This document shows positions 8,069 to 34,763 of a DNA stretch of 64,000 bases, piece by piece. Location: positions 972,081-1,036,080 of the forward strand of contig NZ_VLLL01000005.1 of NCBI RefSeq assembly GCF_007994225.1, read 5' to 3'. Made by a program: the position numbers and the translations under genes. Source of the stretch: Stackebrandtia albiflava (GTDB taxonomy: Bacteria > Actinomycetota > Actinomycetes > Mycobacteriales > Micromonosporaceae). The notes beneath the pieces were generated by a model, which had not been told where the DNA came from, did no database searches, and was given only the letters and a program-made list of their open reading frames with translations. The first letter of the stretch is position 1. Each line of letters starts with the position of its first letter.

Positions 8069-16074
<8,006 letters not shown>

Positions 16075-17943: not shown

Positions 17944-19953
17944 ATGGACGTATCCACAGCGAGTGTGACGGGCGAGCAGGAGACCCGACGACTGCGCCTG
18001 CGGCATGACCTGGTCTTCGCGGAGCTTCCCACCGGCACTCTCGTCCGTCACTCCGACGGCGGCTTCGTCCTGCGCGGCAAGGCGATCTACAAGTGGCTGA
18101 CGACACTCGCGCCGTTCCTGGACGGCACCAAGACCCGTGACGACCTCCTCGCCGGCCTCGACGAGGGACGCGCGGCGATGGTCGGCCGCCTGGTCGACGC
18201 GCTCGTCGACAAGGCGGCCCTGAGCACCGTCACCGGCCCGATGGTCGACGACGGCCACGATCTCGCCGAGTTCCGTCAGCAGATCGCCTACATCGAGCAC
18301 TACGGCGAGAACGGCGTCGAACGGTTCACCGCCTTCCGGGAGGCCGCGGTCAAGGTGGTCGGCGAGGACGCCGTCGCCGACGCGATCAGGCACGGACTCC
18401 TCATCAACGGCCTGAAGCGGGTCGTCGGCGCCGAGGAGGACCTTCCCGGCGACGGCGGCGGGATCCTGGTGGTCACCGCCGTCGAGGGCGGGGTGGACCG
18501 GCTCGTGGCGACGCTGCGCGACAACACCGGGACGGTTCTGCCCGTCGTCCGGGTGGGGGAGAAGGTCGTGATCGGCCCGCTCACCGGGCCCGGGCGCGTC
18601 GGCGACTGGACCACGGCGATGATCCGGCTGTCCCACAACGACGAGAACGGTGACGCGGCACGGTTGTGGCAGGCCGCCGCGGCCCCCGGCCACACCCCGG
18701 CCCCGCCGGCGATGAGGCCGGTGCACGCGTCGCTCGTCGGCCTGATGGCCGCCTACGACGTCTTCCGCGACATCACGAAGGCCCCCGGCGCCGAGACCGA
18801 CGGCGCCGTGGTCGTCGTCGACCTGGCCACCGGCGACGCGGTACGCGAGGAGGTGCTGCCGGATCCGCGGCTCGTCGAAGGACGGTCCACGGTGCCGCCG
18901 GAGGGCTTCGCCGCCGACGTCGACGCCGACGCGGTCGCCGAGGAGAGGCCGATCGTCGGCGACGACGACCACGAGCACGACGACCTGCAGCGTTTCCTGC
19001 GCCTGGTGGGTGCCCACGTGGGAATCGTGACGGGCTTCGACGACGAGGAGATCGACCAGAACCCCGTCAAGATCGCCCGCTCCGTCGTCCACCCCGGTGT
19101 GGCCGATTCGCTTCCGGCGCTCGGGTTCGCCCTGGAGGCGCCGGGCGACGCGCGCCGCCGGGCCACCGAGAACGCGATCCTGGAGCACGTCGTCGCCCTC
19201 GGCCCACTGCCCGCCACCGAGTCGGAGGCCGCGCGTCGCATCGACGCCGACCGGCTCGTCCTGGCCACCGGACTCGGTGACGCCGGGTCGGGCGGCTGGA
19301 CCGCCGGCCGTTCCCTCGACGGTGAGATCGTCGAGGTGCCGACCGCCGCCGTGTACGCGCGCGGCGCGGCCAACGGGCCCGGAGCATTCGAACGAAGCAG
19401 CGCCGGAGAGGGCGTGGGGCAGGACCTCACCACCGCGGTCCGTGCCGGAATCCGATCGGCCCTCGCCTACGAGGGTGTCGCGGCCCTGGCCCGCGGGGAG
19501 AAGATCGTCGAGGTCGACACGTCCGAGATGGACGAGACCGTCGGGTATCTCGTCCGGTCGGCGGCACTGCTGGGCCTCGACTTCGCGGTACACGTCCTTC
19601 CCGCCGCCGCACCGGCCGTCGCCGTGTTCGCGGTCAGGCGCGGGACCGGCGACTACGCCGTGGGTACCGGTGCCGACGTGTCGGCGGCGACGACCGACGC
19701 GCTGCTGCCGCTGATCGGTCGCACCCTGACGACTGGCCGTCCCGGCCTGGACCGGCTCCTGGTCCCCGGCGTCGATCCACGGGCCGCCCGGGTCAGCGCG
19801 GGAGACGGTCCCCTCCCTCCCGCGGAGCCGCCGCTGGCGTCGGCGCTGCGTTCCGAAGGCCGCGAGGCGGTGGTGGTCGAGACGACCCCCGCCGACGTCC
19901 TCGCCACGGGTGCGGTCAGGACCGTTCGGGTCCTCCTCACCCGTCCCCGGTAA
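17944..19953 (+). CDS. Ocin-ThiF-like leader-binding RiPP maturation protein
   Basis: A 669-residue protein of the putative thiazole-bacteriocin maturation family (ocin-ThiF-like). The N-terminal 90 residues look like a RiPP recognition element (LRLRHDLVFAELPTGTLVRH, then GGFVLRGKAIYKWL, LAPFLDG), the winged-helix fold that binds precursor leaders. The remaining part is a diverged E1/ThiF-like region lacking an obvious nucleotide-binding glycine motif. GGAGGAG lies 6 bases before the ATG. It stands directly before the precursor genes and the YcaO gene, so it should deliver leaders to the cyclodehydratase, as F-type proteins do in thiopeptide systems. The family call rests on the N-terminus, size and context; the middle part is weakly recognisable. 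Confidence 0.85.
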   Translation: MDVSTASVTGEQETRRLRLRHDLVFAELPTGTLVRHSDGGFVLRGKAIYKWLTTLAPFLDGTKTRDDLLAGLDEGRAAMVGRLVDALVDKAALSTVTGPMVDDGHDLAEFRQQIAYIEHYGENGVERFTAFREAAVKVVGEDAVADAIRHGLLINGLKRVVGAEEDLPGDGGGILVVTAVEGGVDRLVATLRDNTGTVLPVVRVGEKVVIGPLTGPGRVGDWTTAMIRLSHNDENGDAARLWQAAAAPGHTPAPPAMRPVHASLVGLMAAYDVFRDITKAPGAETDGAVVVVDLATGDAVREEVLPDPRLVEGRSTVPPEGFAADVDADAVAEERPIVGDDDHEHDDLQRFLRLVGAHVGIVTGFDDEEIDQNPVKIARSVVHPGVADSLPALGFALEAPGDARRRATENAILEHVVALGPLPATESEAARRIDADRLVLATGLGDAGSGGWTAGRSLDGEIVEVPTAAVYARGAANGPGAFERSSAGEGVGQDLTTAVRAGIRSALAYEGVAALARGEKIVEVDTSEMDETVGYLVRSAALLGLDFAVHVLPAAAPAVAVFAVRRGTGDYAVGTGADVSAATTDALLPLIGRTLTTGRPGLDRLLVPGVDPRAARVSAGDGPLPPAEPPLASALRSEGREAVVVETTPADVLATGAVRTVRVLLTRPR

Positions 19954-19978
19954 CACGCGCATCGAGAGGAGGAAACCG

Positions 19979-20179
19979 ATGGAGTCGTCGCTCAAGAACG
20001 ATCTGTCCGCTCTGGAGACGGAGACGTTCGAGATCCAGGACACGACCGAACTGGCCCTGGACCAGCCCGCATGGTCGAGCTGCTCGACGTCGAGCTGCTG
20101 TGGCTGTTCGAGCTGCAGCTGCAGCAGCACGAGCTGCAGCAGCACCAGTTCGACCTCGACCACCAGCTGCAGCGGTTAG
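19979..20179 (+). CDS. RiPP precursor peptide 1 (66 aa, W-type)
   Basis: The leader (about 1-32) carries LETETFEIQDTTELALDQPA, matching the family consensus LExETFEIxD. The core from about residue 33 consists of Ser, Cys, Thr and Gly (first stretch SSCSTSSCCGCSSCSC). A Trp precedes the core, as in precursors 3-5. AGGAGG lies 6 bases before the ATG. Cys and Ser/Thr in the core can become thiazoles, oxazoles or dehydroamino acids through the YcaO, dehydrogenase and LanB enzymes downstream. Confidence 0.9.
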   Translation: MESSLKNDLSALETETFEIQDTTELALDQPAWSSCSTSSCCGCSSCSCSSTSCSSTSSTSTTSCSG

Positions 20180-20276
20180 TCGAGCCCCGGACTTCCGCCC
20201 GGTCGCCGGCCCGCCGGAGCGGAGAGCACCACCCCCCCCGGGCCGACCCCTTCACCCATCGAGAGGAGGAAAACCA

Positions 20277-20474
20277 ATGTCGCCACTCAACGACCAGATC
20301 GCCGTGCTGGAGGCCGAGACCTTCGAGGTCGTCGACTTCACCCCGGCCGAGGACCTCGCCGCTTCCACCAGCACCAGCTGCGCGTGCAGCACGACGTCCA
20401 CGTGCTCGTGCTCGACCTCTTCGTGCTGCTCCACCACCAGCTCCAGCTGCAGCTCGACGTCGTCGTGCGCATGA
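20277..20474 (+). CDS. RiPP precursor peptide 2 (65 aa, non-W type)
   Basis: The leader is IAVLEAETFEVVDFTPAEDL; the core begins about STSTSCACSTTSTC and ends TSSCA. It lacks the Trp of the other tandem copies and matches precursor 6 at 32498 far better than its neighbours, so it belongs to a second sublineage. A strong ribosome site (GAGAGGAGGA) precedes the ATG. The core of about 36 residues is more Thr-rich than those of the W-type peptides. Confidence 0.9.
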   Translation: MSPLNDQIAVLEAETFEVVDFTPAEDLAASTSTSCACSTTSTCSCSTSSCCSTTSSSCSSTSSCA

Positions 20475-20520
20475 TCCACTTCGGATCGGATCGACGACCG
20501 AGGATGTGAGAGGAGGAACC

Positions 20521-20688
20521 ATGAACTCACTCATCAAGGACATCGCCGAGCTCGAGGCGCAGACCTTCGAGATCGTCGATGTCGCGGAGCTGTCGCAGGA
20601 CGAGGCACTGACGTGGTCGAGCTGCTCGACGTCGTCGTGCTGCGGAACCACCAGCACCAGCTGCGGCTCGACGTCGTCGTGCGCCTGA
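20521..20688 (+). CDS. RiPP precursor peptide 3 (55 aa, W-type)
   Basis: The shortest copy. The leader is IAELEAQTFEIVDVAELSQD, followed by EALTW and a core of about 23 residues (SSCSTSSCCGTTSTSCGSTS, then SCA). The leader is nearly that of precursors 4 and 5. The upstream 30 bases (GATCGACGACCGAGGATGTG onward) recur before precursor 4, evidence of tandem duplication. GAGGAGG precedes the ATG. Confidence 0.9.
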   Translation: MNSLIKDIAELEAQTFEIVDVAELSQDEALTWSSCSTSSCCGTTSTSCGSTSSCA

Positions 20689-20734
20689 TCCACCCGGTAT
20701 CGGATCGACGACCGAGGATGTGAGAGGAGGAAGC

Positions 20735-20926
20735 ATGAACCCACTCATCAAGGACATCGCCGAGCTCGAGGCGCAGACCTTCGAGATCGACGATGTCGCG
20801 CAGTTGTCGCAGGACGAGGCCGTGACGTGGTCGAGCTGCTCGACGTCGAGCTGCTGTGGCTGCTCCAGCTCCAGTTGCGGCAGCTGCTGCGGCTGCTCGT
20901 CCAGCTGCGGCTCGACATCCGGATGA
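20735..20926 (+). CDS. RiPP precursor peptide 4 (63 aa, W-type)
   Basis: The leader is IAELEAQTFEIDDVAQLSQD, then EAVTW and a 31-residue core starting SSCSTSSCCGCSSSSCGSCC. It differs from precursor 5 at only two residues, near the end (SSSCGSTSG versus SCSCGSTSK). GAGGAGG precedes the ATG. The core has ten Cys, the densest heterocycle potential in the cluster together with precursor 5. Confidence 0.9.
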   Translation: MNPLIKDIAELEAQTFEIDDVAQLSQDEAVTWSSCSTSSCCGCSSSSCGSCCGCSSSCGSTSG

Positions 20927-20969
20927 CGCCCGCGGTCTCGGACCGAACGAGCACATGAGAGGAGGAAGC

Positions 20970-21161
20970 ATGAACCCACTCATCAAGGACATCGCCGAGC
21001 TCGAGGCGCAGACCTTCGAGATCGACGATGTCGCACAGCTCTCGCAGGACGAGGCCGTGACGTGGTCGAGCTGCTCGACGTCGAGCTGCTGCGGCTGCTC
21101 CAGCTCCAGCTGCGGCAGCTGCTGCGGCTGCTCGTGCAGCTGCGGCTCGACGAGCAAGTAG
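20970..21161 (+). CDS. RiPP precursor peptide 5 (63 aa, W-type)
   Basis: Almost identical to precursor 4 in both leader and core, with an extra Cys near the C-terminus and a final Lys instead of Gly. The high DNA identity points to a recent duplication. It lies 34 bases before the YcaO gene and is likely co-transcribed with it. AGGAGGA precedes the ATG. Confidence 0.9.
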   Translation: MNPLIKDIAELEAQTFEIDDVAQLSQDEAVTWSSCSTSSCCGCSSSSCGSCCGCSCSCGSTSK

Positions 21162-21195
21162 CACCGGACGGACATTCAGCGATTCTGGAGAGAAC

Positions 21196-23106
21196 ATGAC
21201 GACGGCGGCCACGGTCGATGCCGTGCAAACGGTTCAGGAACACCTGGACAAGGCGCTTGGGTACGAGGGCGGCTCCCGCCCCATCGTGTACGAGCTCGGA
21301 GAGCGGGACCTGCTGGGCATCTACGGCCCGGTCGATCCCGCGCCCTTCCGCTCCCCGGGCGTGACAACCGTTCACCTGCACGGACGCGACGCCTATGTAC
21401 TGCCGGCGGCCGAATCTGAACGGCCCCCGTGCTCCCTGTGCTTCCACCGCAGGTGGCAGGCTCTCAGACAGGAGGAGGAACGCGACGCCCTCGAACTCAC
21501 GGGCGTGTCGTGTTCGCTGTCCTCCGCACCGTGGATCACTCCGATCACCCTCGCGGCACTCCAGACCCTGGTCGAGAGTGCCCGGCAGGATCGCCCCGAA
21601 CACCTCCCGGGAGCGGGAAGCGTACGGCGGTTGAGGCTCGACAACCTCGCCACCCGTACCTTCCCGCTCCTGACGGAACCCGACTGCCCCAACTGCGGCG
21701 TCGCACCGGAGGGTGGCCCCGCCCGGGCCGTCGTCCCGATGCGGCCCCAGCCCAAGCCGGACGCCGACACGTTCCGGGTCCGTCACGTCCGCGACTACCC
21801 GATCGACATCGAGGCGTTCGCGAACCCGGTGTGCGGCGCCCTGGGCACCCAGGCGCCCGCCGCCTTCGACAACCCCACCACGATGCCCGTCACCGGCTAC
21901 AGCTTCGTACGCGGCGCCGCCCACCTCTACGAGTTCTTCTGGAGCGGGCACGCCGACAACGTCGCCGACTCCCGCCTGCTGGCCGTCCTGGAGGGACTGG
22001 AGCGGTACGCCGGACTGCTGTCCCGCGGCCTGCCGAAACCACTGTGGTCGGCGCTCGACGACCTCGACGCCCCGGCGCTCGACCCGCGTGCCTGCACCCT
22101 CTACCCCAAGGCGTTCTACGACTTCAACGCGCCGTACTTCACGGAGTTCACCCCGTCCCTGGAGATCCCCTGGGTGTGGGGACGGAACCTGACCACCGAC
22201 GAGTCGGTGCTGGTGCCGCAACGTCTGGTCCACTACCTGGACCAGACCGGCCCGGCCTTCGTCGACGAGTGCTCCAACGGCTGCGCCACCGGAAGCTGCC
22301 CCGAGGAGGCGGTGTTCCACGGCGTCATGGAACTCATCGAACGCGATTCGTTCCTGCTCACCTGGTTCGCCAAGCACGAGGCCGTCGAGATCGACCCCCG
22401 AAGCAGCGGGGCACTCGACATCGACCTCATGGTCGAACGCATGGCCCTGGAGGGCTTCGAGGTCCGCATGTTCGACACCAGGGTCGACCTGCCGGTTCCG
22501 GTCGTCACCGCCGTGGCGGTGCGCACCGACGGCAAGCCCGGCAAGCTGTGCTTCGCCGCCGGCTCGTCGATGGACCCGGTGCAGGCGATGCGCGCCGCCC
22601 TGTGCGAGATCGCCTCCTACGTGCCCAGTTTCGAGCGCCGGATGTCCACCGGCGGCGACGAGGCACGGGCCATGGAGGCCGAGTTCGGTCTGGTCCGTGA
22701 ACTCAAGCACCACGCGCTGCTGCACGGCCTCGACTCGATGGCCGTCCACTCGGACTTCCTGCTCGCGAACCGGCGCGCCCTTCCGATGGAGGAGGTCTAC
22801 CGCGAGTGGGAGGCCACCCGTCCCCGCAACCGGGATCTCACCGAGGACCTGCGGTGGATCATCGACCGGCTCGGGCAGAACGGCTTCGCGCTCTACGCGG
22901 TCGACCAGACCTCTCCCGAGCAACGGGACCTGGGCCTGTCCACCTATGCCACGGTCGTGCCGGGTCTGCTGCCCATCGACTTCGGCTGGCACAAGCAGCG
23001 GGCCTTCCACATGGAACGGACCCTCACCGCGCACCGCCGTGCCGGGCTGCGCGACCGGGACCTCACCCCCGCGGAACTGAACCCCGTCCCGCACCCGTTC
23101 CCGTGA
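21196..23106 (+). CDS. YcaO-type TOMM cyclodehydratase
   Basis: A 636-residue enzyme that should convert Cys and Ser/Thr of the precursor cores to azolines using ATP. The N-terminal region (about 1-200) carries a zinc tetrad, CSLC at 79-82 and CPNC at 164-167. The YcaO domain follows, with LEGLERYAG near 264 and ELIERDSFLLTWF near 378, which supply nucleotide- and magnesium-binding acids. The protein ends PVPHPFP, the PxPxP tail that shapes the active site in peptide-modifying YcaO proteins. GGAG lies 5 bases before the ATG. It sits directly after the precursor array and before the dehydrogenase. The separate leader-binding partner is presumably the ThiF-like protein at 17944. Confidence 0.95.
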   Translation: MTTAATVDAVQTVQEHLDKALGYEGGSRPIVYELGERDLLGIYGPVDPAPFRSPGVTTVHLHGRDAYVLPAAESERPPCSLCFHRRWQALRQEEERDALELTGVSCSLSSAPWITPITLAALQTLVESARQDRPEHLPGAGSVRRLRLDNLATRTFPLLTEPDCPNCGVAPEGGPARAVVPMRPQPKPDADTFRVRHVRDYPIDIEAFANPVCGALGTQAPAAFDNPTTMPVTGYSFVRGAAHLYEFFWSGHADNVADSRLLAVLEGLERYAGLLSRGLPKPLWSALDDLDAPALDPRACTLYPKAFYDFNAPYFTEFTPSLEIPWVWGRNLTTDESVLVPQRLVHYLDQTGPAFVDECSNGCATGSCPEEAVFHGVMELIERDSFLLTWFAKHEAVEIDPRSSGALDIDLMVERMALEGFEVRMFDTRVDLPVPVVTAVAVRTDGKPGKLCFAAGSSMDPVQAMRAALCEIASYVPSFERRMSTGGDEARAMEAEFGLVRELKHHALLHGLDSMAVHSDFLLANRRALPMEEVYREWEATRPRNRDLTEDLRWIIDRLGQNGFALYAVDQTSPEQRDLGLSTYATVVPGLLPIDFGWHKQRAFHMERTLTAHRRAGLRDRDLTPAELNPVPHPFP

Positions 23107-23149
23107 GCCGGCCGACGGCACACCGCAACCAGCCCCCGGAGGGAGAACA

Positions 23150-24754
23150 GTGACAGCCACCGAGACGGTGCGCCGGTACGTCGAGGACGTGATCCATCGG
23201 GCCCGAGTCCCGATGCCGCCGTACGACTACACGGTCAACTGGAATGACCAGCCCCGACGGCACAAGGTGTATCCGGGGGCGGCGTCGTTCACGCTCCCGG
23301 TCGGCCCGCCGGTGACGGACGCGCTCGCGACGGCACTCGACCGTACACCCTGGACGGACGGCGACGGCCCACTGGACCCGGCGCGCCTGGGCCGTGCCCT
23401 CAACGACACCTACGGACTGCTCGCCCGGCGGTTGCGGGTGACGGGCAACGACGACGCGGTGAACAAGCCCCGCAGCGCGGTGTCCACCTACTCCCGGGGA
23501 ACCGCCAACGGCGGCGGCCTGTACCCGCTGGAGATGTACTGGGTGAGCGGCGCCTCCGCCGACCAGACCCCCGGTGTGTACCACTGGGACACCGCGTCCG
23601 GGGCGCTGCAACGCCTCATCGCCGGCAACGTGTCCGACCGCGTGCGGGCCGCCCTGCCCGAACCCGCCCCGCAGACCGACCAGTTCCTCCTGGTGTCCGT
23701 GAAGTTCTGGAAGAACTCGTTCAAGTACAACAGCTTCTGCCACCACGTCGTGACGATGGACCTGGGAGCGACCCTCGCCTCCCTCGAACTCCTGGGAGTC
23801 ACCGACGGCGGGGCCGCCGCCGTGCCGCACCTGTGGTTCGACAGCGCGGAACTCGACGCGCTCCTGGGCATCGAGTCGCTGGACGAGACGACACTGGCGG
23901 TGCTCCCGCTCCCGCCGGGACCGCGCGGACTCACGGTTCCGGAACGGTCCGGCGACGCGGCCGTCACCCTCACCGAGGCGGAGCGGTCCAGGGTGACGCA
24001 CCGGTTCGACCAGGTGACCGCGGTCGTCGAGGCCACCCTGGTACCGCAGGCCCTTCCGGACGTCGAGGTCGTCTCCCGAGTGGCCGCCCCGGCGTCGCCC
24101 GAGCCGGTGCCGCTGCCGGAGGTGTCCCTCGACGCCGTGGAAGGCGGCGTGAGCGCGATCCTGGCGCGGCGGCGTTCCTCGTTCGGGACCTTCTCGTCGA
24201 AGACGCCGCTGTCGGCGGAGGAACTGGCGACGCTGCTGCGGGTGACCGCCCGCGGATGCCGGCTGCGCACCGACGCGGGCCGCGCCGACTTCGCCCGGCT
24301 GGCGGTGTTCGTCAACCACGTCGCCGGAATCGCGCCGGGCGCGTACCTGTACGACGAGGAACGCTCCGGCCTGGTCCTCGTCGACGGTGAGGCCCCCGGC
24401 GAACTCCTCCAGACCATGTACTTCCTCGACAACTACAACGTCGAGCAGGCGGCGGCGGTGATCTCGGTGCTCGTGCCCGTCGAGTCCGTGCTCGACGCCG
24501 TCGGCGACCGCGGAGTCCGGCTCCTCAACGCGGTCGTCGGCTCCGCCACCCAGAGCTGCTACGTCGCCGCCAGTGCCCTCGACGTGGCGTGCGGAGCGGC
24601 ACTCGGCTTCGACAACGTCTCCTACGCCGAGCGGCTACGTCTGTCCGGATCGGACGAATGGCCGATGATCATGCTCATGGTCGGCCGCGACCGCGATGAC
24701 CAGGCCGACTTCGCCTACCCCCTGTCGGCACGATCCCCCAAGGAGTCGACGTGA
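23150..24754 (+). CDS. SagB-type azoline dehydrogenase (nitroreductase fold)
   Basis: A 534-residue FMN-dependent enzyme expected to oxidise azolines to thiazoles and oxazoles. Two nitroreductase-like halves are visible. The first (about 75-260) has YSRGTANGGGLYPLEMYWV. The second (about 325-525) begins RRRSSFGTFSSKTPLSAEE and ends with the typical SYAERLRLSGSDEWPMIMLM. Two-part dehydrogenases of this length are usual in thiopeptide-type clusters. The GTG start has GGAGGGAG upstream. The stop overlaps the GTG of the next gene (GTGA). Confidence 0.93.
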   Translation: MTATETVRRYVEDVIHRARVPMPPYDYTVNWNDQPRRHKVYPGAASFTLPVGPPVTDALATALDRTPWTDGDGPLDPARLGRALNDTYGLLARRLRVTGNDDAVNKPRSAVSTYSRGTANGGGLYPLEMYWVSGASADQTPGVYHWDTASGALQRLIAGNVSDRVRAALPEPAPQTDQFLLVSVKFWKNSFKYNSFCHHVVTMDLGATLASLELLGVTDGGAAAVPHLWFDSAELDALLGIESLDETTLAVLPLPPGPRGLTVPERSGDAAVTLTEAERSRVTHRFDQVTAVVEATLVPQALPDVEVVSRVAAPASPEPVPLPEVSLDAVEGGVSAILARRRSSFGTFSSKTPLSAEELATLLRVTARGCRLRTDAGRADFARLAVFVNHVAGIAPGAYLYDEERSGLVLVDGEAPGELLQTMYFLDNYNVEQAAAVISVLVPVESVLDAVGDRGVRLLNAVVGSATQSCYVAASALDVACGAALGFDNVSYAERLRLSGSDEWPMIMLMVGRDRDDQADFAYPLSARSPKEST

Positions 24755-27516
24755 CCAACACCGACCTGCCCGACCTCCCCGCGACGACGCGCGAGACCGC
24801 GCTCTCGGCGCCTCCCCACTTCATGCTGCGGGTGTCCCCGCTGCCGTGGGAGAGACTCTCGGGCCTGCACTTCAGCAGGACGGTCGCCTGGGCCGACGCG
24901 GTCTTGGGCCTGGAGGACCGGTTGCGCGAATATGCCGTCCCCCTGTCGGACGCGATCGAGCCGTTCGTCGGCGGCGAGACCGACGACGCGCACCGGCGCG
25001 CCCTCATCAACCTGCGCCGCGACGTGTTCAACCTGCGCACGCCACGCGACCCCGACCAGACTCGCGCGACCATCGGCAGGCTGCCCGCCGAACTGGCCGC
25101 GACACTCCTCGAATGGCTGGAGATCAGCGTCGCCCACCGGCGGCGGCGGCGCGAGGGTGCCGACGTCTTCGGCGAGGAACTGATCGAGCGTCGCCGCGCC
25201 CTGCAACGGCTCGCGTCGCTTCCGGTGCTGCGCAAGGGCATCATGCTCGCGTCGCCGTCGCTCGACGAGATGCTTCCGCGTTACATGACCGCGGACCCGT
25301 CCAGTCTCTCCAAACGCGCCCGCCGCATCGAGCGGTCGGTCAGCGAGTACGTCTACCGGACCGTCGCCAAGACCAGCCCGTTCAGCACCCTCACCGCTGT
25401 GGCGTTGGGAGGCTTCTCCGACGACGCGGACGGACTCCTCTCCATCGACGCAGACGCGCTGGGTGAGAACCGCCTGGTCAGCCACACCCGGCTCAACCTG
25501 GCGATCCTCGCGCGCGTCGGTGAGGCGATCATCGCCGACGACGACCTCCTCGACGACCTGCCGATCGCGATCTCCAGCGGATGGACCACCGACCGCAAGC
25601 GGGTCCGCTACATGCGGCGCCAGCGCCGCGTCGGCGACGCGTCGGCGGCGATGACCCTCGACACCTTCGACGAGAACGTCTTCTTCCTCGCCCACAGCGA
25701 CATAGTGGACGACCTGTTCCGGCTGCTCCCGGCGGGGGCGACCCGGAAGTTCTCCGAGGTCCGCCGCCTGCTCCACGAGAAGAGCCCGCACGACCGGGCG
25801 GTGGACGACGTGCGCCGCTACCTGCGGCACCTGGTGAGACTGAACCTGGTGACCGTCCCCATGCTGGTCGTGAACATCCACGCCTCCGACCCGATCCGGG
25901 ACTTCGGCGACCGGGTGGCCCGGCTCGACCGTCCGTGGGCGAAGACCCTGACGGAGGACCTGCACCGGCTCAACGACCTCGTCGCCGGGTTCATCGGCTG
26001 CGGCGTGGACGAACGTCGGCTCATCCTGCGGGACCTGCACTCCGAGGTCAAGGAGATGCTGTCGCGCCTGGGCGTGGAGTCGCCGGAGAGCCCGAGGACC
26101 GTGCTGTACGAGGACACCACGCTCCCCGCCGGCGCGGTCGCCGCGAACACCGGGTCCTGGCGCGACGGCGCCGCCGCCGACCTGCGGCAGGTGGCGCGGA
26201 TCCTGCCGCTCTTCGACGCGATGTCCTCGCACCGCCTGATGGCGCGCGGGTTCTTCCACGCCCGCTTCGGCCGCGGCGGCCGGTGCGACGACCTGGTGAA
26301 GTTCACCCACGAGTTCCACCTGGACGTGTACGACCAGTACCTGCGGTACTCCTTCAACCACAAGTCGTTCATCGACAACGAGTACCAGGACCAGGAGAAC
26401 TGGTTCAAGATGCCCGAGGTCACCGCGTTGGACGACGCGCGGCGCACCCTCATCTCCGAGATGCGGCGGCGCTACGCCGCACACGGCGACGACGCGCACG
26501 AACTCGTCCTCGACCAGGACTTCATCGACACCGTCGCGGCGAAGCTGCCGCCCATGGACGACGACCTCGACCCGCGGGCGTACTTCGTGCAGGTCGGCGA
26601 CGTCGACGGTGACCGGCGGGTCGTGGTCAACCGCACGTACACGGGCCTGTCGCTGCTGTTCTCCCGGTTCCAGCACTGCTTCCCCGCCTCCGACGGGGTG
26701 GACCTGGCCGGTGCGCTGCGCGACCACCTGCGGGAGATCACGCCCGAGGGCGCGGTCCTGGCCGAGGTCACCGGCGGGTACGACACCTCCAACCTCAACC
26801 TGCACGCCGAGGTCACGCCGTACGAGATCGTGTGTCCCGGCGAGATCTCCTTCCGCGACCCGCAGGACCAGATCCCGGTCGAGGACCTGTACGTGGTGGG
26901 CGACGAGGAGACCGGTCGGCTCACCCTGCGCTCCAAGCGGCTCGGCAAGGAGGTCATCCCCGTCTACCTGGGCTTCCTGATGCCGATGGCGCTGCCGGAG
27001 ATGCAACGCCTGCTGTTGACCTTCTCCCGCACCCGCATCGCCAGCCTCGACCTGTGGTCGGGCACCGACCAGCCGTTGGGGGACGCCGAGATCGGCGGCC
27101 ACCCGCGTGTCCGGTTCGGAGACCTGATCCTGGTGCGCCGGGTGTGGAAGACCGACCCGTCGAACCTGCCCGAGGGGATGGTCGGTGCCGAGGGCGCCGA
27201 GCGTGTCCTCGGCTGGCACCGCTGGGCCAGGACGCACAAGCTGCCACGGTACGTGTTCGTCACGCCGGACGCGGTCGATCCCGACGAGGACGACGAGGCG
27301 GACGGCGCGGTGCGGTTCGGCAAACCGCAGTTCGTGGACTTCGAGGACTACTTCTCGTTGGGGCTGCTCGACAACCTCGCCGAGTCGGCGAACCGGCGCC
27401 TGGTGTTCACGGAGATGCTGCCGGACTCCGAGGGACTGGTCGCCAAGGGACCGAACGGCGAACGGTACGTCACCGAACTCACGATCGAGATCAACGAAGC
27501 GGGAATGACGAAATGA
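24751..27516 (+). CDS. Split LanB, N-terminal (glutamylation) dehydratase protein
   Basis: A 921-residue lantibiotic-dehydratase N-terminal family protein. Such proteins use glutamyl-tRNA to glutamylate Ser/Thr, which are then eliminated to dehydroalanine or dehydrobutyrine. Recognisable stretches include SPLPWERLSGLHF, SVSEYVYRTVAKTSPFST (typical LanB), SSGWTTDRKRVRYMRRQ and, near the C-terminus, WARTHKLPRYVFV and YFVQVGD. The elimination domain is absent here and is supplied by the next gene, as in thiopeptide and goadsporin systems. It is coupled to both neighbours by 4-base overlaps. With only Ser and Thr available besides Cys, much of the core could be a substrate. Confidence 0.93.
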   Translation: MTNTDLPDLPATTRETALSAPPHFMLRVSPLPWERLSGLHFSRTVAWADAVLGLEDRLREYAVPLSDAIEPFVGGETDDAHRRALINLRRDVFNLRTPRDPDQTRATIGRLPAELAATLLEWLEISVAHRRRRREGADVFGEELIERRRALQRLASLPVLRKGIMLASPSLDEMLPRYMTADPSSLSKRARRIERSVSEYVYRTVAKTSPFSTLTAVALGGFSDDADGLLSIDADALGENRLVSHTRLNLAILARVGEAIIADDDLLDDLPIAISSGWTTDRKRVRYMRRQRRVGDASAAMTLDTFDENVFFLAHSDIVDDLFRLLPAGATRKFSEVRRLLHEKSPHDRAVDDVRRYLRHLVRLNLVTVPMLVVNIHASDPIRDFGDRVARLDRPWAKTLTEDLHRLNDLVAGFIGCGVDERRLILRDLHSEVKEMLSRLGVESPESPRTVLYEDTTLPAGAVAANTGSWRDGAAADLRQVARILPLFDAMSSHRLMARGFFHARFGRGGRCDDLVKFTHEFHLDVYDQYLRYSFNHKSFIDNEYQDQENWFKMPEVTALDDARRTLISEMRRRYAAHGDDAHELVLDQDFIDTVAAKLPPMDDDLDPRAYFVQVGDVDGDRRVVVNRTYTGLSLLFSRFQHCFPASDGVDLAGALRDHLREITPEGAVLAEVTGGYDTSNLNLHAEVTPYEIVCPGEISFRDPQDQIPVEDLYVVGDEETGRLTLRSKRLGKEVIPVYLGFLMPMALPEMQRLLLTFSRTRIASLDLWSGTDQPLGDAEIGGHPRVRFGDLILVRRVWKTDPSNLPEGMVGAEGAERVLGWHRWARTHKLPRYVFVTPDAVDPDEDDEADGAVRFGKPQFVDFEDYFSLGLLDNLAESANRRLVFTEMLPDSEGLVAKGPNGERYVTELTIEINEAGMTK

Positions 27517-28676
27517 CCACTGACTCGCCCACCCAGGCCGAGAACGCCACGTTCGCGGTCACCCCCGTCGCCGTCGACGCGGAGATCCCGGTCCCGGAGG
27601 ACCCGGACGCTCCCGGCGAGTGGCTGGCGGTGCACGTCTTCTACTCCAGCAACAACCACCCACTCCTGGTCGACGGGATCGCGCCCGTCATCGAGGAACT
27701 CCGCGAGGAGGGCCTCATCCGCCGCTGGTTCTTCATCCGTTACTGGATGGAGGGACCGCACCTGCGCGTCCGGCTCCTGCCCAGGCGCGCCGGAGACGCC
27801 GAGACGATCGCCAAGCGGCTCTTCAAGTCGCTCGACGAGTTCCTCGCCGACCGTCCCGCCCTGTACGAGATGGACGAGTCGGAGATGGGCGGGCTGTTCA
27901 AGGAGATGTTCCTCGGCGAGTACTCCGAGGAGCAGTGGAACCAGCTGTACGGCGCGGACGGCAACATGCCGATGCGGCCCAACAACTCCTACGCGGTGAT
28001 GCGGTACGAACCGGAGGTCGCCCGATACGGCGGCCCCCACGGCATCGAGATCGCCGAGCGCCACTTCGAGAAGTCGAGCGACATGGTGCTGCGCCTGGTG
28101 GAGATGACCAACGTGCACGTGCGATCGGTCCTGTTCGGACTGGCCGCGCAGCTGATGACCGTGATGCTGGCGGCGTTCCAGCAGGACAGGGCGGCGTCGG
28201 CGGCCTTCCTGTCCACCTACCGGACCTACTGGGAACGCTCCGGCGACGGCGACTCCTCGCCGCGCCACTCCGCCTACAACGACGCCTACCAGACCATGTC
28301 GAGCGAACTGCACGACCATCTGGGCGCCGTCTACGAGACCGCCTCACGGCACGACGTCGAGTCGTTGAGCGGATTCCTGCGGGAGTGGGCCGAGCACTGC
28401 GTCGAACTGCGCACCGAACTGGTCGATCTCGCCGGGCAGGGCAAGCTCGAGTTCCCGATCGGCATGGACTCCCAGGCCGGCCCCGTCGACGCCGACACGG
28501 CCCTGTTCGCGCTGCTCAGCGGCTACATCCACATGACCAACAACCGGCTCGGCGTCAGCATCATCGACGAGTGCTACCTGTCCTACCTCCTGGAGCTGAC
28601 GCTCACCGGAGGCGAACCGGTCGACCTGGAGGCCAACATCGGCGCGATGTTCGGCGGAACGGGTGCCGATAGATGA
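27513..28676 (+). CDS. SpaB_C/thiopeptide-type biosynthesis protein (LanB C-terminal family)
   Basis: A 387-residue member of the family that includes the LanB glutamate-elimination domain and thiopeptide pyridine synthases. Typical parts are WLAVHVFYSSNNHPLLVDGI, then RRWFFIRYWMEGPHLRVRLL (the conserved RYxxxGPHLR) and a C-terminal segment ending GYIHMTNNRLGVSI and YLLELTL. Only one protein of this family is present, whereas thiopeptide clusters usually carry two (elimination and cycloaddition). It most simply pairs with the upstream LanB protein as the elimination partner; pyridine formation cannot be excluded. ATGA overlaps join it to both neighbours. Confidence 0.9.
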   Translation: MTTDSPTQAENATFAVTPVAVDAEIPVPEDPDAPGEWLAVHVFYSSNNHPLLVDGIAPVIEELREEGLIRRWFFIRYWMEGPHLRVRLLPRRAGDAETIAKRLFKSLDEFLADRPALYEMDESEMGGLFKEMFLGEYSEEQWNQLYGADGNMPMRPNNSYAVMRYEPEVARYGGPHGIEIAERHFEKSSDMVLRLVEMTNVHVRSVLFGLAAQLMTVMLAAFQQDRAASAAFLSTYRTYWERSGDGDSSPRHSAYNDAYQTMSSELHDHLGAVYETASRHDVESLSGFLREWAEHCVELRTELVDLAGQGKLEFPIGMDSQAGPVDADTALFALLSGYIHMTNNRLGVSIIDECYLSYLLELTLTGGEPVDLEANIGAMFGGTGADR

Positions 28677-29950
28677 GTGACACGAGCACGGTCCCGCAGA
28701 TGCGGACGGCACGGCCCCGGGTGGACCCGGCCGTCCGCATCGGCCCCGGCCTGTGGGACGGTGACCGGCGGCTCTACACCCTGCACGACCCGCGCACCGG
28801 TTGGTACTTCCGCATCGGCGAGCACGAACACTTCCTGACGTCCCGTATGGACGGTGAGCGGACCGTCGAGGAGATCGAGGACGAGTTCATCGCGCACTTC
28901 CGCAAGCGCCTGACCCCGGCGCTGTGGCAGTCGATGTTCACGCTGCTGGGTCAACGCGGACTGCTCGTCGGCTCCGACGACCCGGTCCTCATGGCGCGGC
29001 TGCGCGACGCCAGGGACAGCCAGTCGGAGCGGTCCCGGACCTGGCTGCACGCGCGGCTGCCGCTGGTACGCCCCGAACGGCTCCTGGACCGGCTGGCCGC
29101 CGTGGTCCGGCCGCTCGACCGGCCGGTCTCCTGGGCGCTGGTCTGGCTCGCGGCGGCGGCCGCGATCTGTTACACGGCACTGCTGTGGAACGACGTGTGG
29201 CCGCAGGCCCGGACACTGTGGACCGAGCCGGCGGCCATGATCGTCTTCGTGGTGATCGCCTGGACCTCGCTGTTCCTGCACGAACTCGGACACGGTGTCG
29301 TCGCCAAGCTCTACGGAGCGCGCGACATCGAGATCGGTTTCATGTGGCGGCTTCCGGTCATCGCGGCGTACTGCAAAGTGGACGACAGCCTCCTCTTCCA
29401 CGACCGCATGCGCCGGGTACGGGTCGCGTTCGCGGGAGTGACGGTGTCGGTGGCCGTCAGCGCGCCCTTCGCGCCGCTGCACTGGATCACCGCGGGGGAG
29501 GGGATGTGGGGAACGGTGTCGGCGGCGATGCTGACCTTCGGCATGTTCTCCGGCCTGATGAACCTTCTTCCGGTGTTCAGGCTCGACGGCTACTATGTCC
29601 TCAGCCACCTGCTGGACGTGTCGGCGCTCGACGAGTCGGCCCGCCGCGAACTGGTGAGGCTCGTGCGGCGAGGCGGGGCACCGGCCGTGCCCGGGCCGAA
29701 ACGCCGGGTCTACCTCGCGTACGGCATCGGTGCCTACCTGTTCCTGACCGCACTCGTCGCGGCGATGGCCGCCTTCGCCTACTTCGGCATCACCCCGTAC
29801 GTGGGGGCGGGCGCCGCGGTCGCCCTGATCGCGACCGCGATCCTGCTCGCCTTCGTCCTCGGCGTGATCATGACCCGACGCTCTCGCCGGAAGATGTCCG
29901 CCCTTCCCGGGACCCAAGCCCCCGACCACTCGAAATGGGGACAGACATGA
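28673..29950 (+). CDS. Membrane M50 zinc metalloprotease with N-terminal recognition-like domain
   Basis: A 425-residue membrane protein. The first 110 residues are soluble and PqqD-like (GDRRLYTLHDPRTGWYFRIG, then MDGERTVEEI), as in RiPP recognition elements. Transmembrane helices follow, with the zinc motif HELGHG near 203 and the third-ligand motif FRLDGYYVLSH near 303, both hallmarks of site-2-type M50 peptidases. ATGA overlaps link it to both neighbours. Because the leader must be removed and no other protease is in the operon, it is the best candidate leader peptidase, probably coupled to export by the next two genes. This role is inferred from context. Confidence 0.88.
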   Translation: MSDTSTVPQMRTARPRVDPAVRIGPGLWDGDRRLYTLHDPRTGWYFRIGEHEHFLTSRMDGERTVEEIEDEFIAHFRKRLTPALWQSMFTLLGQRGLLVGSDDPVLMARLRDARDSQSERSRTWLHARLPLVRPERLLDRLAAVVRPLDRPVSWALVWLAAAAAICYTALLWNDVWPQARTLWTEPAAMIVFVVIAWTSLFLHELGHGVVAKLYGARDIEIGFMWRLPVIAAYCKVDDSLLFHDRMRRVRVAFAGVTVSVAVSAPFAPLHWITAGEGMWGTVSAAMLTFGMFSGLMNLLPVFRLDGYYVLSHLLDVSALDESARRELVRLVRRGGAPAVPGPKRRVYLAYGIGAYLFLTALVAAMAAFAYFGITPYVGAGAAVALIATAILLAFVLGVIMTRRSRRKMSALPGTQAPDHSKWGQT

Positions 29951-30882
29951 CCCAAGGAACCGACGGGCCGGTGATCGAGACCAGCGGCCTGACGAAACGA
30001 TTCGGCGGCAAGTCCGCCGTGGACGACGTGACGCTCGACGTCCGGCGCGGCGAGGTCTACGGGTTCGTGGGCCTCAACGGCGCCGGCAAGACGACGTTCA
30101 TGCGCATGCTGGTCGGACTGGCCAGGCCCACCGCGGGCTCCCTCAAGGTGCTCGGCCACTCCCGCCTCACCAACCCGGTGCTGCGGCGCGTCGGCACCAC
30201 GATCGAGCGGCCGGCCTTCTACCCGGGAATGACCGGCAGGCAGAACCTCTCGCTACTGGCGCGGTACTCCGGCATGGGTGACGCCGACATCGACGCCGCC
30301 CTGAAGACGGTGGACCTGGCCGATCGCGCGGGGGACAGGTTCCGCACCTACTCCCTCGGCATGAAGCAGCGCCTCGCCCTGGCCTCGGCACTCATGGGCG
30401 AACCCGAACTGCTGATCCTCGACGAACCCGCGAACGGCCTGGACCCCTCGGGCATGGCCGCGATGCGGGAACTCATCCGGGAACAGGCCGCACGCGGTTG
30501 CACCGTCATGCTCTCCAGCCACCTCCTGGGGGAGATAGCGCAGGTGTGCGACCGCGTCGGCGTGCTCCACCACGGACGACTCATCGCGGTCGGGACCACC
30601 GCCGAGATCGAGGCGCAGTACGGTGCCCGGCCCGCGCTCCTGGTGACGTGCGACGACACCGGGAAGGCGGCCTCGGTCGCCCGCGACCTGGACGGCGTGC
30701 AGGACGTGAGCGAACAGGACGGCGGCATCCTCGTGTACGCGCCCGAGGACGCCGCGGGCGCACTCAACTCGGCCCTCGTCGCGGCCGGGATCACGGTACG
30801 GGGCATCAGACCCAACGAACGCAGCCTCGAAGACGTGTTCCTAGAGATGACCAGCGACACCGCGAACGAAGGGCGGGCATGA
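29947..30882 (+). CDS. ABC transporter ATP-binding protein
   Basis: A 311-residue ATPase of the drug/bacteriocin export type. Walker A is GLNGAGKTT (near 40), the signature is YSLGMKQRL (near 137) and Walker B is LLILDEP, followed by GLDPSG and the H-loop SSHLL. The C-terminal extension of about 90 residues ends NERSLEDVFLEMT, typical of DrrA/NodI-like exporters. It overlaps the protease stop and the permease start (ATGA each). It should energise export of the mature peptide or self-protection. Confidence 0.95.
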   Translation: MTQGTDGPVIETSGLTKRFGGKSAVDDVTLDVRRGEVYGFVGLNGAGKTTFMRMLVGLARPTAGSLKVLGHSRLTNPVLRRVGTTIERPAFYPGMTGRQNLSLLARYSGMGDADIDAALKTVDLADRAGDRFRTYSLGMKQRLALASALMGEPELLILDEPANGLDPSGMAAMRELIREQAARGCTVMLSSHLLGEIAQVCDRVGVLHHGRLIAVGTTAEIEAQYGARPALLVTCDDTGKAASVARDLDGVQDVSEQDGGILVYAPEDAAGALNSALVAAGITVRGIRPNERSLEDVFLEMTSDTANEGRA

Positions 30883-31706
30883 TGGGCCGGGCGTTGAGCG
30901 CCGAACTGTACGGGATACGCCACCGTGGCTCGTTCACCGTGGTCTCCGTCGTATGGCTGCTGCAGATAGTCCTGTTCGCGTATCTCGCGAACTACATCGT
31001 CTCGTTGACCGTCGCCGAACTCCCCGCCGACCAGATCCAGGCCATGAAGGACGGCCTGGCCCCCTCGGCGGTGGCCGCGGCGGTCGTCGGATCGCTGCCC
31101 ATGTACGGCGGTCCGGTGATGATCATCCTCGGCGCGCTGATCGGCGCGGGCGACGAACGTTCCGGAATGCTGCGCACCGTGCTCAGCAGGTTCCCGGAAC
31201 GCGGCAGGCTGGTGGCCGCCAAACTCGTGGCGTTGACGGCGCTGATCCTGGTGCTCATGGCCGTCACCTTCGTCGTGGCGTTCCTGTGCGGCCTGGCGGT
31301 CTCGCTCATCGAGGGCACGCAGTGGTCCTTCCCGTCCTTGGCCGACACCGCGGCGGGACTGGGCGCGGCGTGGCTCATCGGCGTGGCCTGGGCCGTGCTC
31401 GGCTTCGGCATCGCGGTCCTGACGCGTTCCCTGGCGGGGACGATCGCGATCGGCCTGTTGTGGGCACTGGTGTTGGAGCAGGCACTCCACGGCCTGGCGG
31501 GTGTCGCCACGGTGCTGGAGTCGGTGCGCCCCGCCCTTCTCAGCGGCGCTTCGGCGATCCTCGCCGAGTCCGTCGGTTCGGCTGGGGCGATGCCGGCCGG
31601 TACCCCCGACGCGGGCGTTCCGGTCGCCATAGTGGTTCTGTCGGTATGGATAGCGGTGAGCGCGGTCGCGTCCGCGATCGTGTTCCGCCGCAGAGATGTG
31701 GCATGA
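30879..31706 (+). CDS. ABC-2 type transporter permease
   Basis: A 275-residue polytopic membrane protein with about six transmembrane helices (for example VVSVVWLLQIVLFAYLANYI and LILVLMAVTFVVAFLCGLAV). It starts with overlapping ATGATG at the stop of the ATPase gene, its obvious partner. The pattern of helices, including a long loop holding YGGPVMIILGALIGAGDER, fits ABC-2 permeases of bacteriocin immunity/export systems. It is probably the membrane channel for the RiPP product. Confidence 0.92.
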   Translation: MMGRALSAELYGIRHRGSFTVVSVVWLLQIVLFAYLANYIVSLTVAELPADQIQAMKDGLAPSAVAAAVVGSLPMYGGPVMIILGALIGAGDERSGMLRTVLSRFPERGRLVAAKLVALTALILVLMAVTFVVAFLCGLAVSLIEGTQWSFPSLADTAAGLGAAWLIGVAWAVLGFGIAVLTRSLAGTIAIGLLWALVLEQALHGLAGVATVLESVRPALLSGASAILAESVGSAGAMPAGTPDAGVPVAIVVLSVWIAVSAVASAIVFRRRDVA

Positions 31707-31716
31707 GGAGGACGAG

Positions 31717-32004
31717 ATGGTCGACGGTGCGGCGTCCAGGGGACGCGGCAGGTTCTTGAACGTGGCCGTGTGGGTCACGGTGGCCGGAGTGTTGTGCGCG
31801 GTGGCCGCCGCGGTCTCCACGACGGTGGGAGGCATGGAGGGGGTGGTGCGCGCCGTCGGCTTCACGGCCATGGTGTGCGCCGTCGTCTCGGGCGCCGGTG
31901 CGGTGATGCACTCGCTGAACGGGGCGAAGGCCCTGTACGCGACGGCGGCCGTCGCGACGTTCATCGCGGGTTCCACGTTCTTCGGAATGAGTTTCTCCGC
32001 CTGA
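31717..32004 (+). CDS. Small membrane protein with three helices (95 aa)
   Basis: Residues about 14-35, 43-66 and 72-95 are hydrophobic helices (VAVWVTVAGVLCAVAAAVS and similar). I start at the ATG at 31717 because GAGGAGG lies just before it. It closes the RiPP operon, 11 bases after the permease, and a perfect hairpin follows. Small membrane proteins at this position often give immunity or assist the exporter; nothing in the sequence decides this. No known family recognised. Confidence 0.8.
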   Translation: MVDGAASRGRGRFLNVAVWVTVAGVLCAVAAAVSTTVGGMEGVVRAVGFTAMVCAVVSGAGAVMHSLNGAKALYATAAVATFIAGSTFFGMSFSA

Positions 32005-32016
32005 CCTCGCGGCTAC

Positions 32017-32051
32017 TCCGGTGGCGGAGCGTTCCCGGCACCGCCACCGGA
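32017..32051 (+). terminator. Hairpin terminator at the end of the RiPP operon
   Basis: TCCGGTGGCGG (32017-32027) pairs perfectly with CCGCCACCGGA (32041-32051) over a 13-base loop, 13 bases after the stop codon. No T-tract follows. Confidence 0.7.
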
Positions 32052-32497
32052 CCGTGCCGCCGTCCGGCTGCACCTCGCGCGGCTTCCGGCTGCCCGACGG
32101 CCGATCCGCGGCCGGCGCGCGGCGGTCGCGGGCCGATTGGACAGCCCACGTGGTTGTTCGTATCATTCGATCTGATCTCTGCGCCGGTCTCCGGCGGTAC
32201 GCGGCAGGTCAGCCGCGGCCATCGGATGTACGGCGTTGTCACGCCCGGATCTCACCGAGCTGTTCCGCCCGTCCACAGTGCCCAATCTCGTCGCGCGTCG
32301 GCCGACCGTCGCGTGGGCGGGCGCTCCCGAGACCACCCGCGACGCCTCGCGTCGGCGGGCCGAGGAGACGGGGCGCGGGCGGAGCCCCCGCCGTTCACAC
32401 CCACAGTGGACGGCCGCACCCGTACGACCGTACGGTCCGACAGCCCGCATCGGTGATGCGGGGCCGGACCGAGAGAAACCAGTCCAGGAGGACAGAC
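32052..32497. promoter_or_regulatory. Intergenic region before precursor 6
   Basis: There is no gene in these 446 bases. They hold a 12-bp palindrome (GACCGTACGGTC, 32426-32437) and, 7 bases on, a hairpin of CCCGCATC (32444-32451) with GATGCGGG (32455-32462) that ends 35 bases before the precursor start. These may be operator and leader structures for separate control of precursor 6. Confidence 0.45.
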
Positions 32498-32701
32498 ATG
32501 TCGCACCTCATCGACCAGATCGCCGTCTTGGAGGCGGAGACCTTCGAGGTCGTCGACCTCATCCCCAACGACGACCTGCAGGCGGCGTCCACCAGCACCA
32601 CCAGCAGTGCGTGCAGCACCACCTCCACCTGCTCGTGCTCGACCTCGTCCTGCTGCGGCACCACGAGCTGCAGCTGCGCCTCGACCTCGTCCTGCGCATA
32701 G
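32498..32701 (+). CDS. RiPP precursor peptide 6 (67 aa, non-W type, distal)
   Basis: The leader is IAVLEAETFEVVDLIPNDDL and the core of about 37 residues begins STSTTSSACSTTSTCSCSTS and ends STSSCA. It is the sister of precursor 2, with the same leader and CSTTSTCSCSTSSCC block, although 12 kb away. CAGGAGG lies about 9 bases before the ATG. It follows the exporter terminator and so needs its own promoter. The same cluster enzymes are expected to act on it. Confidence 0.9.
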   Translation: MSHLIDQIAVLEAETFEVVDLIPNDDLQAASTSTTSSACSTTSTCSCSTSSCCGTTSCSCASTSSCA

Positions 32702-33025
32702 CCGGAGCCGTCGGGAGGCGGCGTCGCGACGGCTGAGCTGGCTCCTCGACCGTCGTGGCCACAGTGGTCGGTCGGGTTCCCCGGAACGGGCGGTCCGCCG
32801 TCCCGGGGAACCCGGCTCACACTCCGAAGTGTATCGACGCCTTCCGATATCGTCTCGGATTGGCTATCCTGCGGAGAACTCGGCGCGACGGGTACCGGTA
32901 CACGCTCCACGACGCCGGAGTCGTTCCGCGACCGATCGACCCGATCCCCGGTGGCGGGCGATTCCGCTCGGCCGGTCACCGTCCACGTCGGTGGCCACAC
33001 TCGGAGTTCCCTGGATTGGTGCGCG
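32702..33025. promoter_or_regulatory. Intergenic region with ESX-substrate promoter motif
   Basis: A 324-base region without a gene. At 32856-32872 lies CGGATTGGCTATCCTGC, found again with one change at 34747-34763, in both cases about 140-155 bases before a DUF1023-type gene. TATCCT may be the -10. Nothing else stands out. Confidence 0.5.
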
Positions 33026-34654: not shown

Positions 34655-34746
34655 CCCCGACCCGGGGCATGGCGGAGTGTGCCGGGTTCACCCGTGGAAT
34701 CTCGATACCGGTGGATCGGGCGCTGCCGCGTCTGTCCGATTCGCGC

Positions 34747-34763
34747 CGGATTGGTTATCCTGC
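34747..34763 (+). promoter_or_regulatory. Second copy of the ESX-substrate promoter motif
   Basis: CGGATTGGTTATCCTGC differs at one base from the motif at 32856 and stands at a similar distance (142 bases) from the next start. A shorter relative, CGATTATCCCGCA, lies at 41012-41024 before the small ESX protein start at 41048. Confidence 0.5.

What the first reader, a model, noticed from the sequence alone, without database searches (positions are those of the whole stretch)
17944..32701. RiPP cluster with thiopeptide-type enzymes but very long Cys/Ser/Thr/Gly-only cores
Six precursors share the leader consensus LExETFExxD and have cores of 23-37 residues made of Cys, Ser, Thr and Gly with few others. 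The genes encode YcaO, dehydrogenase, split LanB, leader-binding protein, M50 protease and ABC exporter in one coupled run. Classical thiopeptide cores have about 12-18 mixed residues. A product with ten or more azoles and many dehydroamino acids, almost without normal side chains, would be unusual. That enzymes of this type act on this type of core is established; the product itself is inference.
Basis: partly seen in the sequence, partly recalled or inferred. Interest (0 to 1): 0.88.

Follow-up and report, generated by a model that had tools for sequence, protein, structure and literature searches.

The report
Linear azole-rich peptide gene cluster
A Stackebrandtia-like actinobacterium carries an intact-looking gene set that probably turns peptides made almost only of cysteine, serine, threonine and glycine into linear, thiazole-rich products; related clusters occur in many actinobacteria, and no described product was found in the searches made.

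Summary
Six precursors (five at 19979-21161, one at 32498-32701) have cores of 23-37 residues that are 92-100% Cys/Ser/Thr/Gly, next to genes for a leader-binding protein, YcaO, SagB-type dehydrogenase, split LanB, M50 protease and ABC transporter. The cores are real: between related Stackebrandtia genomes they show many synonymous and few amino-acid changes. The interpretation needs a correction. The cluster's only LanB C-terminal protein falls, by tree and active-site motif, with thiopeptide elimination enzymes and not with pyridine synthases, and the genome has no match over the pyridine-synthase cut-off. So it is most likely not a thiopeptide cluster. It should make linear, goadsporin-like peptides with thiazoles from Cys and dehydroalanines from Ser before Cys, the leader probably being cut by the M50 protease. 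'Ten or more azoles' is possible from Cys alone only in p5 (cores hold 5-10 Cys). The family is widespread: one scan gave 233 related places (E<=1e-3), of which the best 80 were examined; NCBI already names some of its precursors 'thiazolylpeptide-type bacteriocin'. My paper searches found no described product. Verdict: an uncharacterised new variant of a known kind. All product chemistry remains inference.

The parts
17944..19953 (+). F protein: leader-peptide-binding protein with an N-terminal RRE (residues 17-93) like PbtF
   Evidence: TIGR03882 over cut-off, TIGR03693 below cut-off; PbtF 8t19 E 8e-11 with the single sequence, 2.5e-15 with a profile
19979..20179 (+). precursor p1, core 34 residues, 8 Cys
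   Evidence: TIGR03892 18.7 bits, below cut-off 25
20277..20474 (+). precursor p2, core 36 residues, 8 Cys
20521..20688 (+). precursor p3, core 23 residues, 5 Cys
20735..20926 (+). precursor p4, core 31 residues, 9 Cys
   Evidence: 208-nt direct repeat shared with p3 and p5
20970..21161 (+). precursor p5, core 31 residues, 10 Cys, ends in Lys
   Evidence: NF033400 22.7 bits, below cut-off 30
21196..23106 (+). YcaO cyclodehydratase (SagD type), C-terminus VPHPFP
   Evidence: TIGR03604 304 bits over cut-off, PF02624 1.6e-74; only PF02624 match in the genome
23150..24754 (+). SagB-type azoline dehydrogenase, two SagB-like stretches
   Evidence: TIGR03605 over cut-off, 2 stretches; PF00881
24751..27516 (+). 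LanB N-terminal (glutamylation) protein
   Evidence: PF04738 1.7e-39; 6ec7 'Lantibiotic dehydratase domain protein' 3e-36 and 9jhq 'Goadsporin biosynthetic protein' 6e-15
27513..28676 (+). LanB C-terminal (elimination) protein, HMTNNRL motif
   Evidence: PF14028 3.5e-49; trees; motif
28673..29950 (+). M50 intramembrane metalloprotease (HELGH, LDGY) with an N-terminal domain that may be an RRE
   Evidence: PF02163; NF041824 156 bits, below cut-off 300; conservation in 14 sequences; weak RRE evidence
29935..30882 (+). ABC transporter ATPase, DrrA/lantibiotic-protection type, no peptidase domain found
30879..31706 (+). ABC-2 permease
   Evidence: PF12679 2.9e-10
31696..32004 (+). small membrane-type protein, possible immunity (inference)
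   Evidence: no Pfam hit at E<=0.01; homologues 64% and 59% identical at the same place in the two other Stackebrandtia loci
32498..32701 (+). precursor p6, core 37 residues, 8 Cys, outside the operon

Best explanation
A RiPP cluster that makes a set of linear azole- and dehydroalanine-rich peptides, working like goadsporin biosynthesis with thiopeptide-type enzymes but without pyridine formation. The RRE of the F protein binds the LExxTFE leader. YcaO cyclises Cys (perhaps some Ser/Thr) and the SagB protein oxidises the rings to azoles. LanB-N then glutamylates Ser (some Thr) next to azoles, and LanB-C eliminates glutamate to give Dha/Dhb. The M50 protease, perhaps with its own leader-binding domain, removes the leader, and the ABC pair exports the product or protects the cell. 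Shown here: gene content, homology, purifying selection on the cores, no match over the pyridine-synthase cut-off, Ser-before-Cys bias. Inferred: all chemistry, its order, the cleavage site and the function.
For: Enzyme classes identified. Tree of 65 rows (37 of 103 family rows plus the window): family and 10 TbtC-type partners lie on one side (100/100), all 10 pyridine synthases on the other; same split with the genome's three other LanB-C places added, none of them on the pyridine-synthase side, though on long branches. Motif position: H in 10 of 10 TbtC-type tails, Y in 10 of 10 pyridine synthases, read by eye; H in 97 of 103 family rows by pattern. Own genome: the only NF045556 match at E<=1e-10 is this protein, 96 bits against a cut-off of 325; of the 46 genomes with the closer cluster, 45 have no match over the cut-off and 43 have one match in all. 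M50 gene in 102 of 105 family loci, 0 of 10 pyridine-synthase loci. Core pairs between genomes: pS 0.32-0.84, pN 0.01-0.10 in 8 pairs. Ser before Cys 94 of 133 against 52% in shuffles (z 5.0, 17 representative cores) and 39 of 53 against 47% (z 4.3, 15 cores, 2-YcaO group). Precedents: goadsporin Dha at S4 and S14 need azoles at 5 and 15 (PMC5303826, passages); carnazolamide Dha all lie before an azole.
Against: No product was seen. By sequence against the PDB, the LanB-C family profile matches pyridine synthase TbtD best (1.4e-16), then TsrE (3e-10, role not established here), and lantibiotic dehydratases less (4.5e-8 to 2.6e-5); I recognised no stand-alone elimination protein among the hits. 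Counting LanB-C genes by P0005 tblastn is not fully sensitive: in the 10 pyridine-synthase loci it showed both proteins in 7 only. TbtD rows did not form one group (they enclose five X rows; they do, 86/88). Precursors fall under the NCBIfam cut-offs. The Ser-before-Cys test only partly removes relatedness. The RRE in the M50 protein is weakly supported (hhalign probability 67%).
Confidence: 0.8

Rival explanations
1. A true thiopeptide cluster: the LanB-C protein is the pyridine synthase and cyclises two Dha into a macrocycle, with elimination done elsewhere.
For: Best PDB sequence match is TbtD; NF045556 gives 96.7 bits; thiopeptide-type F, YcaO and split LanB.
Against: The TbtC-type partners in the ten true pyridine-synthase genomes also match NF045556, at 51-153 bits, nine of ten ending by profile position 280 of 354. 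Trees and H/Y motif. One LanB-C in 103 of 105 family loci, the other two being fragments without any (limited sensitivity, see above). A leader protease is present, whereas cyclisation itself removes the leader in thiopeptides and pyritides (PMC10885120, passages).
Confidence: 0.07
2. A lanthipeptide/azole hybrid in which some Cys add to Dha to form thioether rings.
For: LanB pair and abundant Cys/Ser/Thr.
Against: No cyclase (LanC) domain among the nine proteins scanned at E<=0.01; the rest of the genome was not searched for one.
Confidence: 0.04
3. A pearlin-like scaffold system: the LanB-N protein adds amino acids to a peptide end and the M50 protease releases them, as TglG/TmoG do.
For: [quoted passage not shown] LanB-like PEARL enzymes form peptide bonds (PMC11212132, listing).
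Against: A separate elimination protein with YcaO and SagB is conserved in the family; the cores themselves are under purifying selection.
Confidence: 0.04
4. Unmodified Cys-rich peptides, for example metal-binding, beside an unrelated RiPP operon.
For: Cys-rich composition only.
Against: Shared leader; a precursor was found by pattern in 90 of the 101 family loci that show a YcaO (some of the 11 others are fragments, and L125 has one that the pattern missed); in the genus the precursors occur in just the 3 of 5 genomes that carry the cluster.
Confidence: 0.02

Closest known systems
Goadsporin (Streptomyces sp. TP-A0584)
   Same: YcaO, dehydrogenase and split LanB (GodF/GodG) acting on one linear core; Dha placed before azoles (PMC5303826, passages)
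   Different: Core 19 residues, a final acetylation, and a putative ABC transporter with a peptidase domain (GodB); here an M50 protease, a separate F protein, six precursors and cores almost without other side chains
Thiopeptides (thiomuracin Tbt, GE2270 Pbt)
   Same: PbtF-like RRE F protein, TbtB-like LanB-N (6ec7; the name TbtB is recalled), TbtC-type elimination protein (the TbtC label is mine, from gene position), Cys/Ser/Thr cores
   Different: No match over the pyridine-synthase cut-off in the genome; longer cores; a leader protease is present
Dehydrazoles (carnazolamide)
   Same: Long core with 8 azoles and 8 Dha, Dha directly before azoles (PMC10676384)
   Different: Dehydration by a LanM-type DUF4135 enzyme and a large nitrile-hydratase-like leader; here split LanB and a leader of about 30 residues
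NCBIfam 'thiazolylpeptide-type bacteriocin' precursors (TIGR03892, NF033400)
   Same: Four of ten relatives' precursors, taken from family loci, pass a cut-off
   Different: All six window precursors score below the cut-offs; the model names give no product

Membership tests
Thiopeptide | [4+2] pyridine synthase, ubiquitous in thiopeptide clusters (PMC4603692 section 12) | tested here: not met
   NF045556 over the whole genome: only P0005, under the cut-off; trees and motif put it with elimination enzymes
Thiopeptide | YcaO cyclodehydratase with F protein and azoline dehydrogenase | tested here: met
Thiopeptide | Split LanB glutamylation and elimination proteins | tested here: met
Thiopeptide | Six-membered nitrogen heterocycle in the product | not testable with these tools
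   needs isolation of the product
Goadsporin-type linear azole peptide | YcaO/dehydrogenase plus split LanB without pyridine synthase | tested here: met
Goadsporin-type linear azole peptide | Acetylating enzyme and peptidase-ABC transporter | tested here: not met
   No such domains among the nine cluster proteins scanned
Goadsporin-type linear azole peptide | Linear product with azoles and Dha | not testable with these tools
   no product data
Dehydrazole | LanM-type DUF4135 dehydratase and nitrile-hydratase-like leader | tested here: not met
   No DUF4135 hit among the nine cluster proteins at E<=0.01; leaders are 29-32 residues with the core starts
NCBIfam thiazolylpeptide-type bacteriocin precursor | Score over the TIGR03892 or NF033400 cut-off | tested here: not met
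   0 of 6 window precursors; 4 of 10 relatives pass

The most novel reading that the evidence does not exclude
The family makes a class of its own: neutral rod-like peptides of 23-37 residues in which nearly every residue is thiazole, oxazole, dehydroalanine or glycine. Core types that recur side by side in single genomes of Stackebrandtia, Catellatospora and Modestobacter (WSSCSTSSCC... and ...STSSCC...SSCA) would act as a multi-component set. In sister clusters a second YcaO would add Ser/Thr rings to Thr-rich, Cys-poor cores.
Probability: 0.15. Interest if true: 0.8.

Novelty: new variant of a known kind. Interest (0 to 1): 0.5.

Why it matters
If right, a widespread group of actinobacterial clusters whose parts carry thiopeptide-like names is a separate, undescribed family of linear azole/dehydroalanine peptides with an M50 leader protease. 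The six natural cores, and the Ser-before-Cys rule read from them, give a direct way to test how YcaO and split LanB share substrates that offer almost nothing but modifiable residues.

Tried and rejected
Pyridine-synthase reading of P0005: rejected by trees and motif, although the PDB comparison alone pointed to TbtD. Chance low-complexity ORFs: rejected by the Markov control and codon comparison. First composition listings over loci also caught frames of other genes, which I dropped by eye or by pattern. In one search contig-end loci were counted as one-YcaO; one search sets 19 of 105 aside as unclear, and two precursors without a parsable core were left out there. Six of 103 LanB-C rows lacked the H pattern: L048 and L051 read HMTNNRF, L140 repeats L048, L118 was a 10-residue parsing fault, L104 was not looked at, and one row reads AVATNRL. 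One search was a loose motif scan of the genome's LanB-C places that told little. One search read L003 and L004 (and L002) on the wrong strand and is void for those rows; one search repeats it correctly. Papers: six leader or core strings in print, 0 papers (figures not held); the other searches gave no paper that I recognised, from listings or passages, as describing this family; most subscription papers are not in the library. Promoter-like sites at 17662 (before F) and 32138 (before p6) are consensus matches only; terminator-like sites were fewer than in shuffles.
Full report
Observation. The region 17944-32701 holds an F-type leader-binding protein, five precursor genes, YcaO, a SagB-type dehydrogenase, LanB-N, LanB-C, an M50 protease, an ABC pair, a 102-residue protein and, about 490 bases on, a sixth precursor. 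From the dehydrogenase to the ABC permease, four of five junctions overlap by 4 bases and one by 16 as drawn; YcaO and the dehydrogenase are 43 bases apart. All six precursors share LExxTFE; the letter before T is E in three and Q in three. Cores are 23-37 residues and 92-100% Cys/Ser/Thr/Gly. A profile of 14 precursors (A2) finds exactly these six places in the genome at E<=1.

The cores are under selection. Among three Stackebrandtia genomes, in the eight between-genome pairs (orthology judged by type and position), core synonymous differences per site are 0.32-0.84, above 0.5 in seven of eight, while non-synonymous ones are 0.01-0.10. The three within-genome pairs gave ratios of 0.33-0.34. 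A strict composition filter found 5 ORFs in the window, all precursors, and 0 in each of 20 Markov windows. So the cores are neither chance nor free repeats, although p3-p5 share a 208-nt repeat.

Distribution. LanB-N matches 70 of 300 genomes of the same bacterial family at E<=1e-20; 46 of them, the own genome included, form a closer group with E<=3.6e-169, the next full-length match being 3.5e-55. The scan of named genomes gave 233 relatives at E<=1e-3, of which the best 80 were fetched: Ca. Stackebrandtia, Catellatospora, Actinomadura, Nocardiopsis, Micromonospora, Pseudonocardia, Modestobacter, Streptomyces, Kitasatospora and others. Of 105 family loci examined (about 97 distinct), 89 show all six core genes (F, YcaO, SagB, LanB-N, LanB-C, M50); of the 16 others, 15 are cut by contig ends and one (L183, Nonomuraea) lacks only the M50 gene. 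Two architectures appear: 23 loci with one YcaO and enough flank to judge, 63 with two, 19 unclear. One-YcaO cores, the window's six included, are Cys-rich (37 cores, median 33 residues, 8 Cys); two-YcaO cores are shorter and Thr-richer (34 cores, median 22 residues, 4 Cys). STSS[CT]C is in 35 of 37 one-YcaO cores and 0 of 34 two-YcaO cores.

Not a pyridine-forming cluster. Ten of 300 family genomes hold a pyridine synthase over the NF045556 cut-off, and all ten also hold a partner LanB-C protein nearby. In a 65-row tree (37 of 103 family rows, the window, 10 partners, 10 synthases, 7 others) the window protein, its family and the partners lie on one side (100/100), the ten synthases with five of the others on the other side. 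The three other LanB-C places of the own genome, added, also fall outside the synthase side, on long branches whose place is unsure. Five residues before a conserved Arg/Lys near the C-terminus the ten partners read His and the ten synthases Tyr, as I read the tails. That this His matches the catalytic His of NisB is recalled; the lantibiotic dehydratase 5ehk aligns there with HMT. P0005 has HMTNNRL. Against this, the PDB comparison ranks TbtD first, and counting LanB-C genes with P0005 found both proteins in only 7 of the 10 synthase loci. The wider model does better: of the 46 genomes with the closer cluster, 43 have a single NF045556 match and 45 none over the cut-off. The synthase loci show no M50 homologue in the regions fetched, 0 of 10 (one region of 4 kb, one of 14 kb, eight of 20 kb), whereas 102 of 105 family loci do.

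Mechanism. Residues 17-93 of the F protein match the solved PbtF domain, so leader recognition is thiopeptide-like. YcaO and SagB should give azoles; in goadsporin azoles are needed before LanB acts (PMC5303826, passages). In both architectures Ser, not Thr, is over-represented before Cys, which fits Dha N-terminal to a thiazole as in goadsporin and carnazolamide. For leader removal the M50 protein is the best candidate: it keeps HExxH and LDG in all 14 sequences aligned, and M50 enzymes cleave peptides in epipeptide and pearlin pathways (PMC10885120, passages). Its N-terminal domain resembles an RRE only weakly (hhalign 67%; PqqD 3g2b E 0.078; PF05402 E 0.085). The ABC ATPase shows no peptidase domain and may export or protect.

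What is known. NCBI's 'thiazolylpeptide-type bacteriocin' models recognise 4 of 10 relatives' precursors and none of the six here above cut-off. No held paper prints the six strings searched, and the other searches found no product that I recognised as this family (listed under Tried and rejected). ThioFinder describes up to four or five nearly identical precursor genes in thiopeptide clusters (PMC3454323, passages); here there are six, of at least two core types. The product, its activity and its self-protection are unknown.

Noticed in passing
L043, L045-L053, L099-L103, L131-L134 and others (63 loci): A sister architecture with a second YcaO carries shorter, Thr-rich, Cys-poor cores; the second YcaO may make Ser/Thr rings.
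   Followed up: partly
G000:C6:70614-73467 and G000:C9:71154-71900 (L002-L004): Three further LanB C-terminal places in the same genome, on other contigs; placed outside the pyridine-synthase side on long branches.
   Followed up: partly
window 7744-16074: Large NRPS open frame with two condensation, two adenylation and three carrier stretches and a terminal reductase-type domain, upstream of the cluster.
   Followed up: no
window 32951-36575: Two tandem Abhydrolase_8 proteins directly after p6.
   Followed up: no
window 39350-41347: EccE-type protein, suggesting a type VII secretion locus nearby.
   Followed up: no
L098:10971-11849: A LanB-C protein with HMTNNR sits just outside the family in the tree (100/99), in a locus where no F protein was detected.
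   Followed up: partly
L183 (Nonomuraea fuscirosea): The only family locus not cut by a contig end that lacks the M50 gene.
   Followed up: no
L181 (Acrocarpospora macrocephala): Several precursor-like ORFs with divergent cores, some with Trp, Tyr or Met.
   Followed up: no
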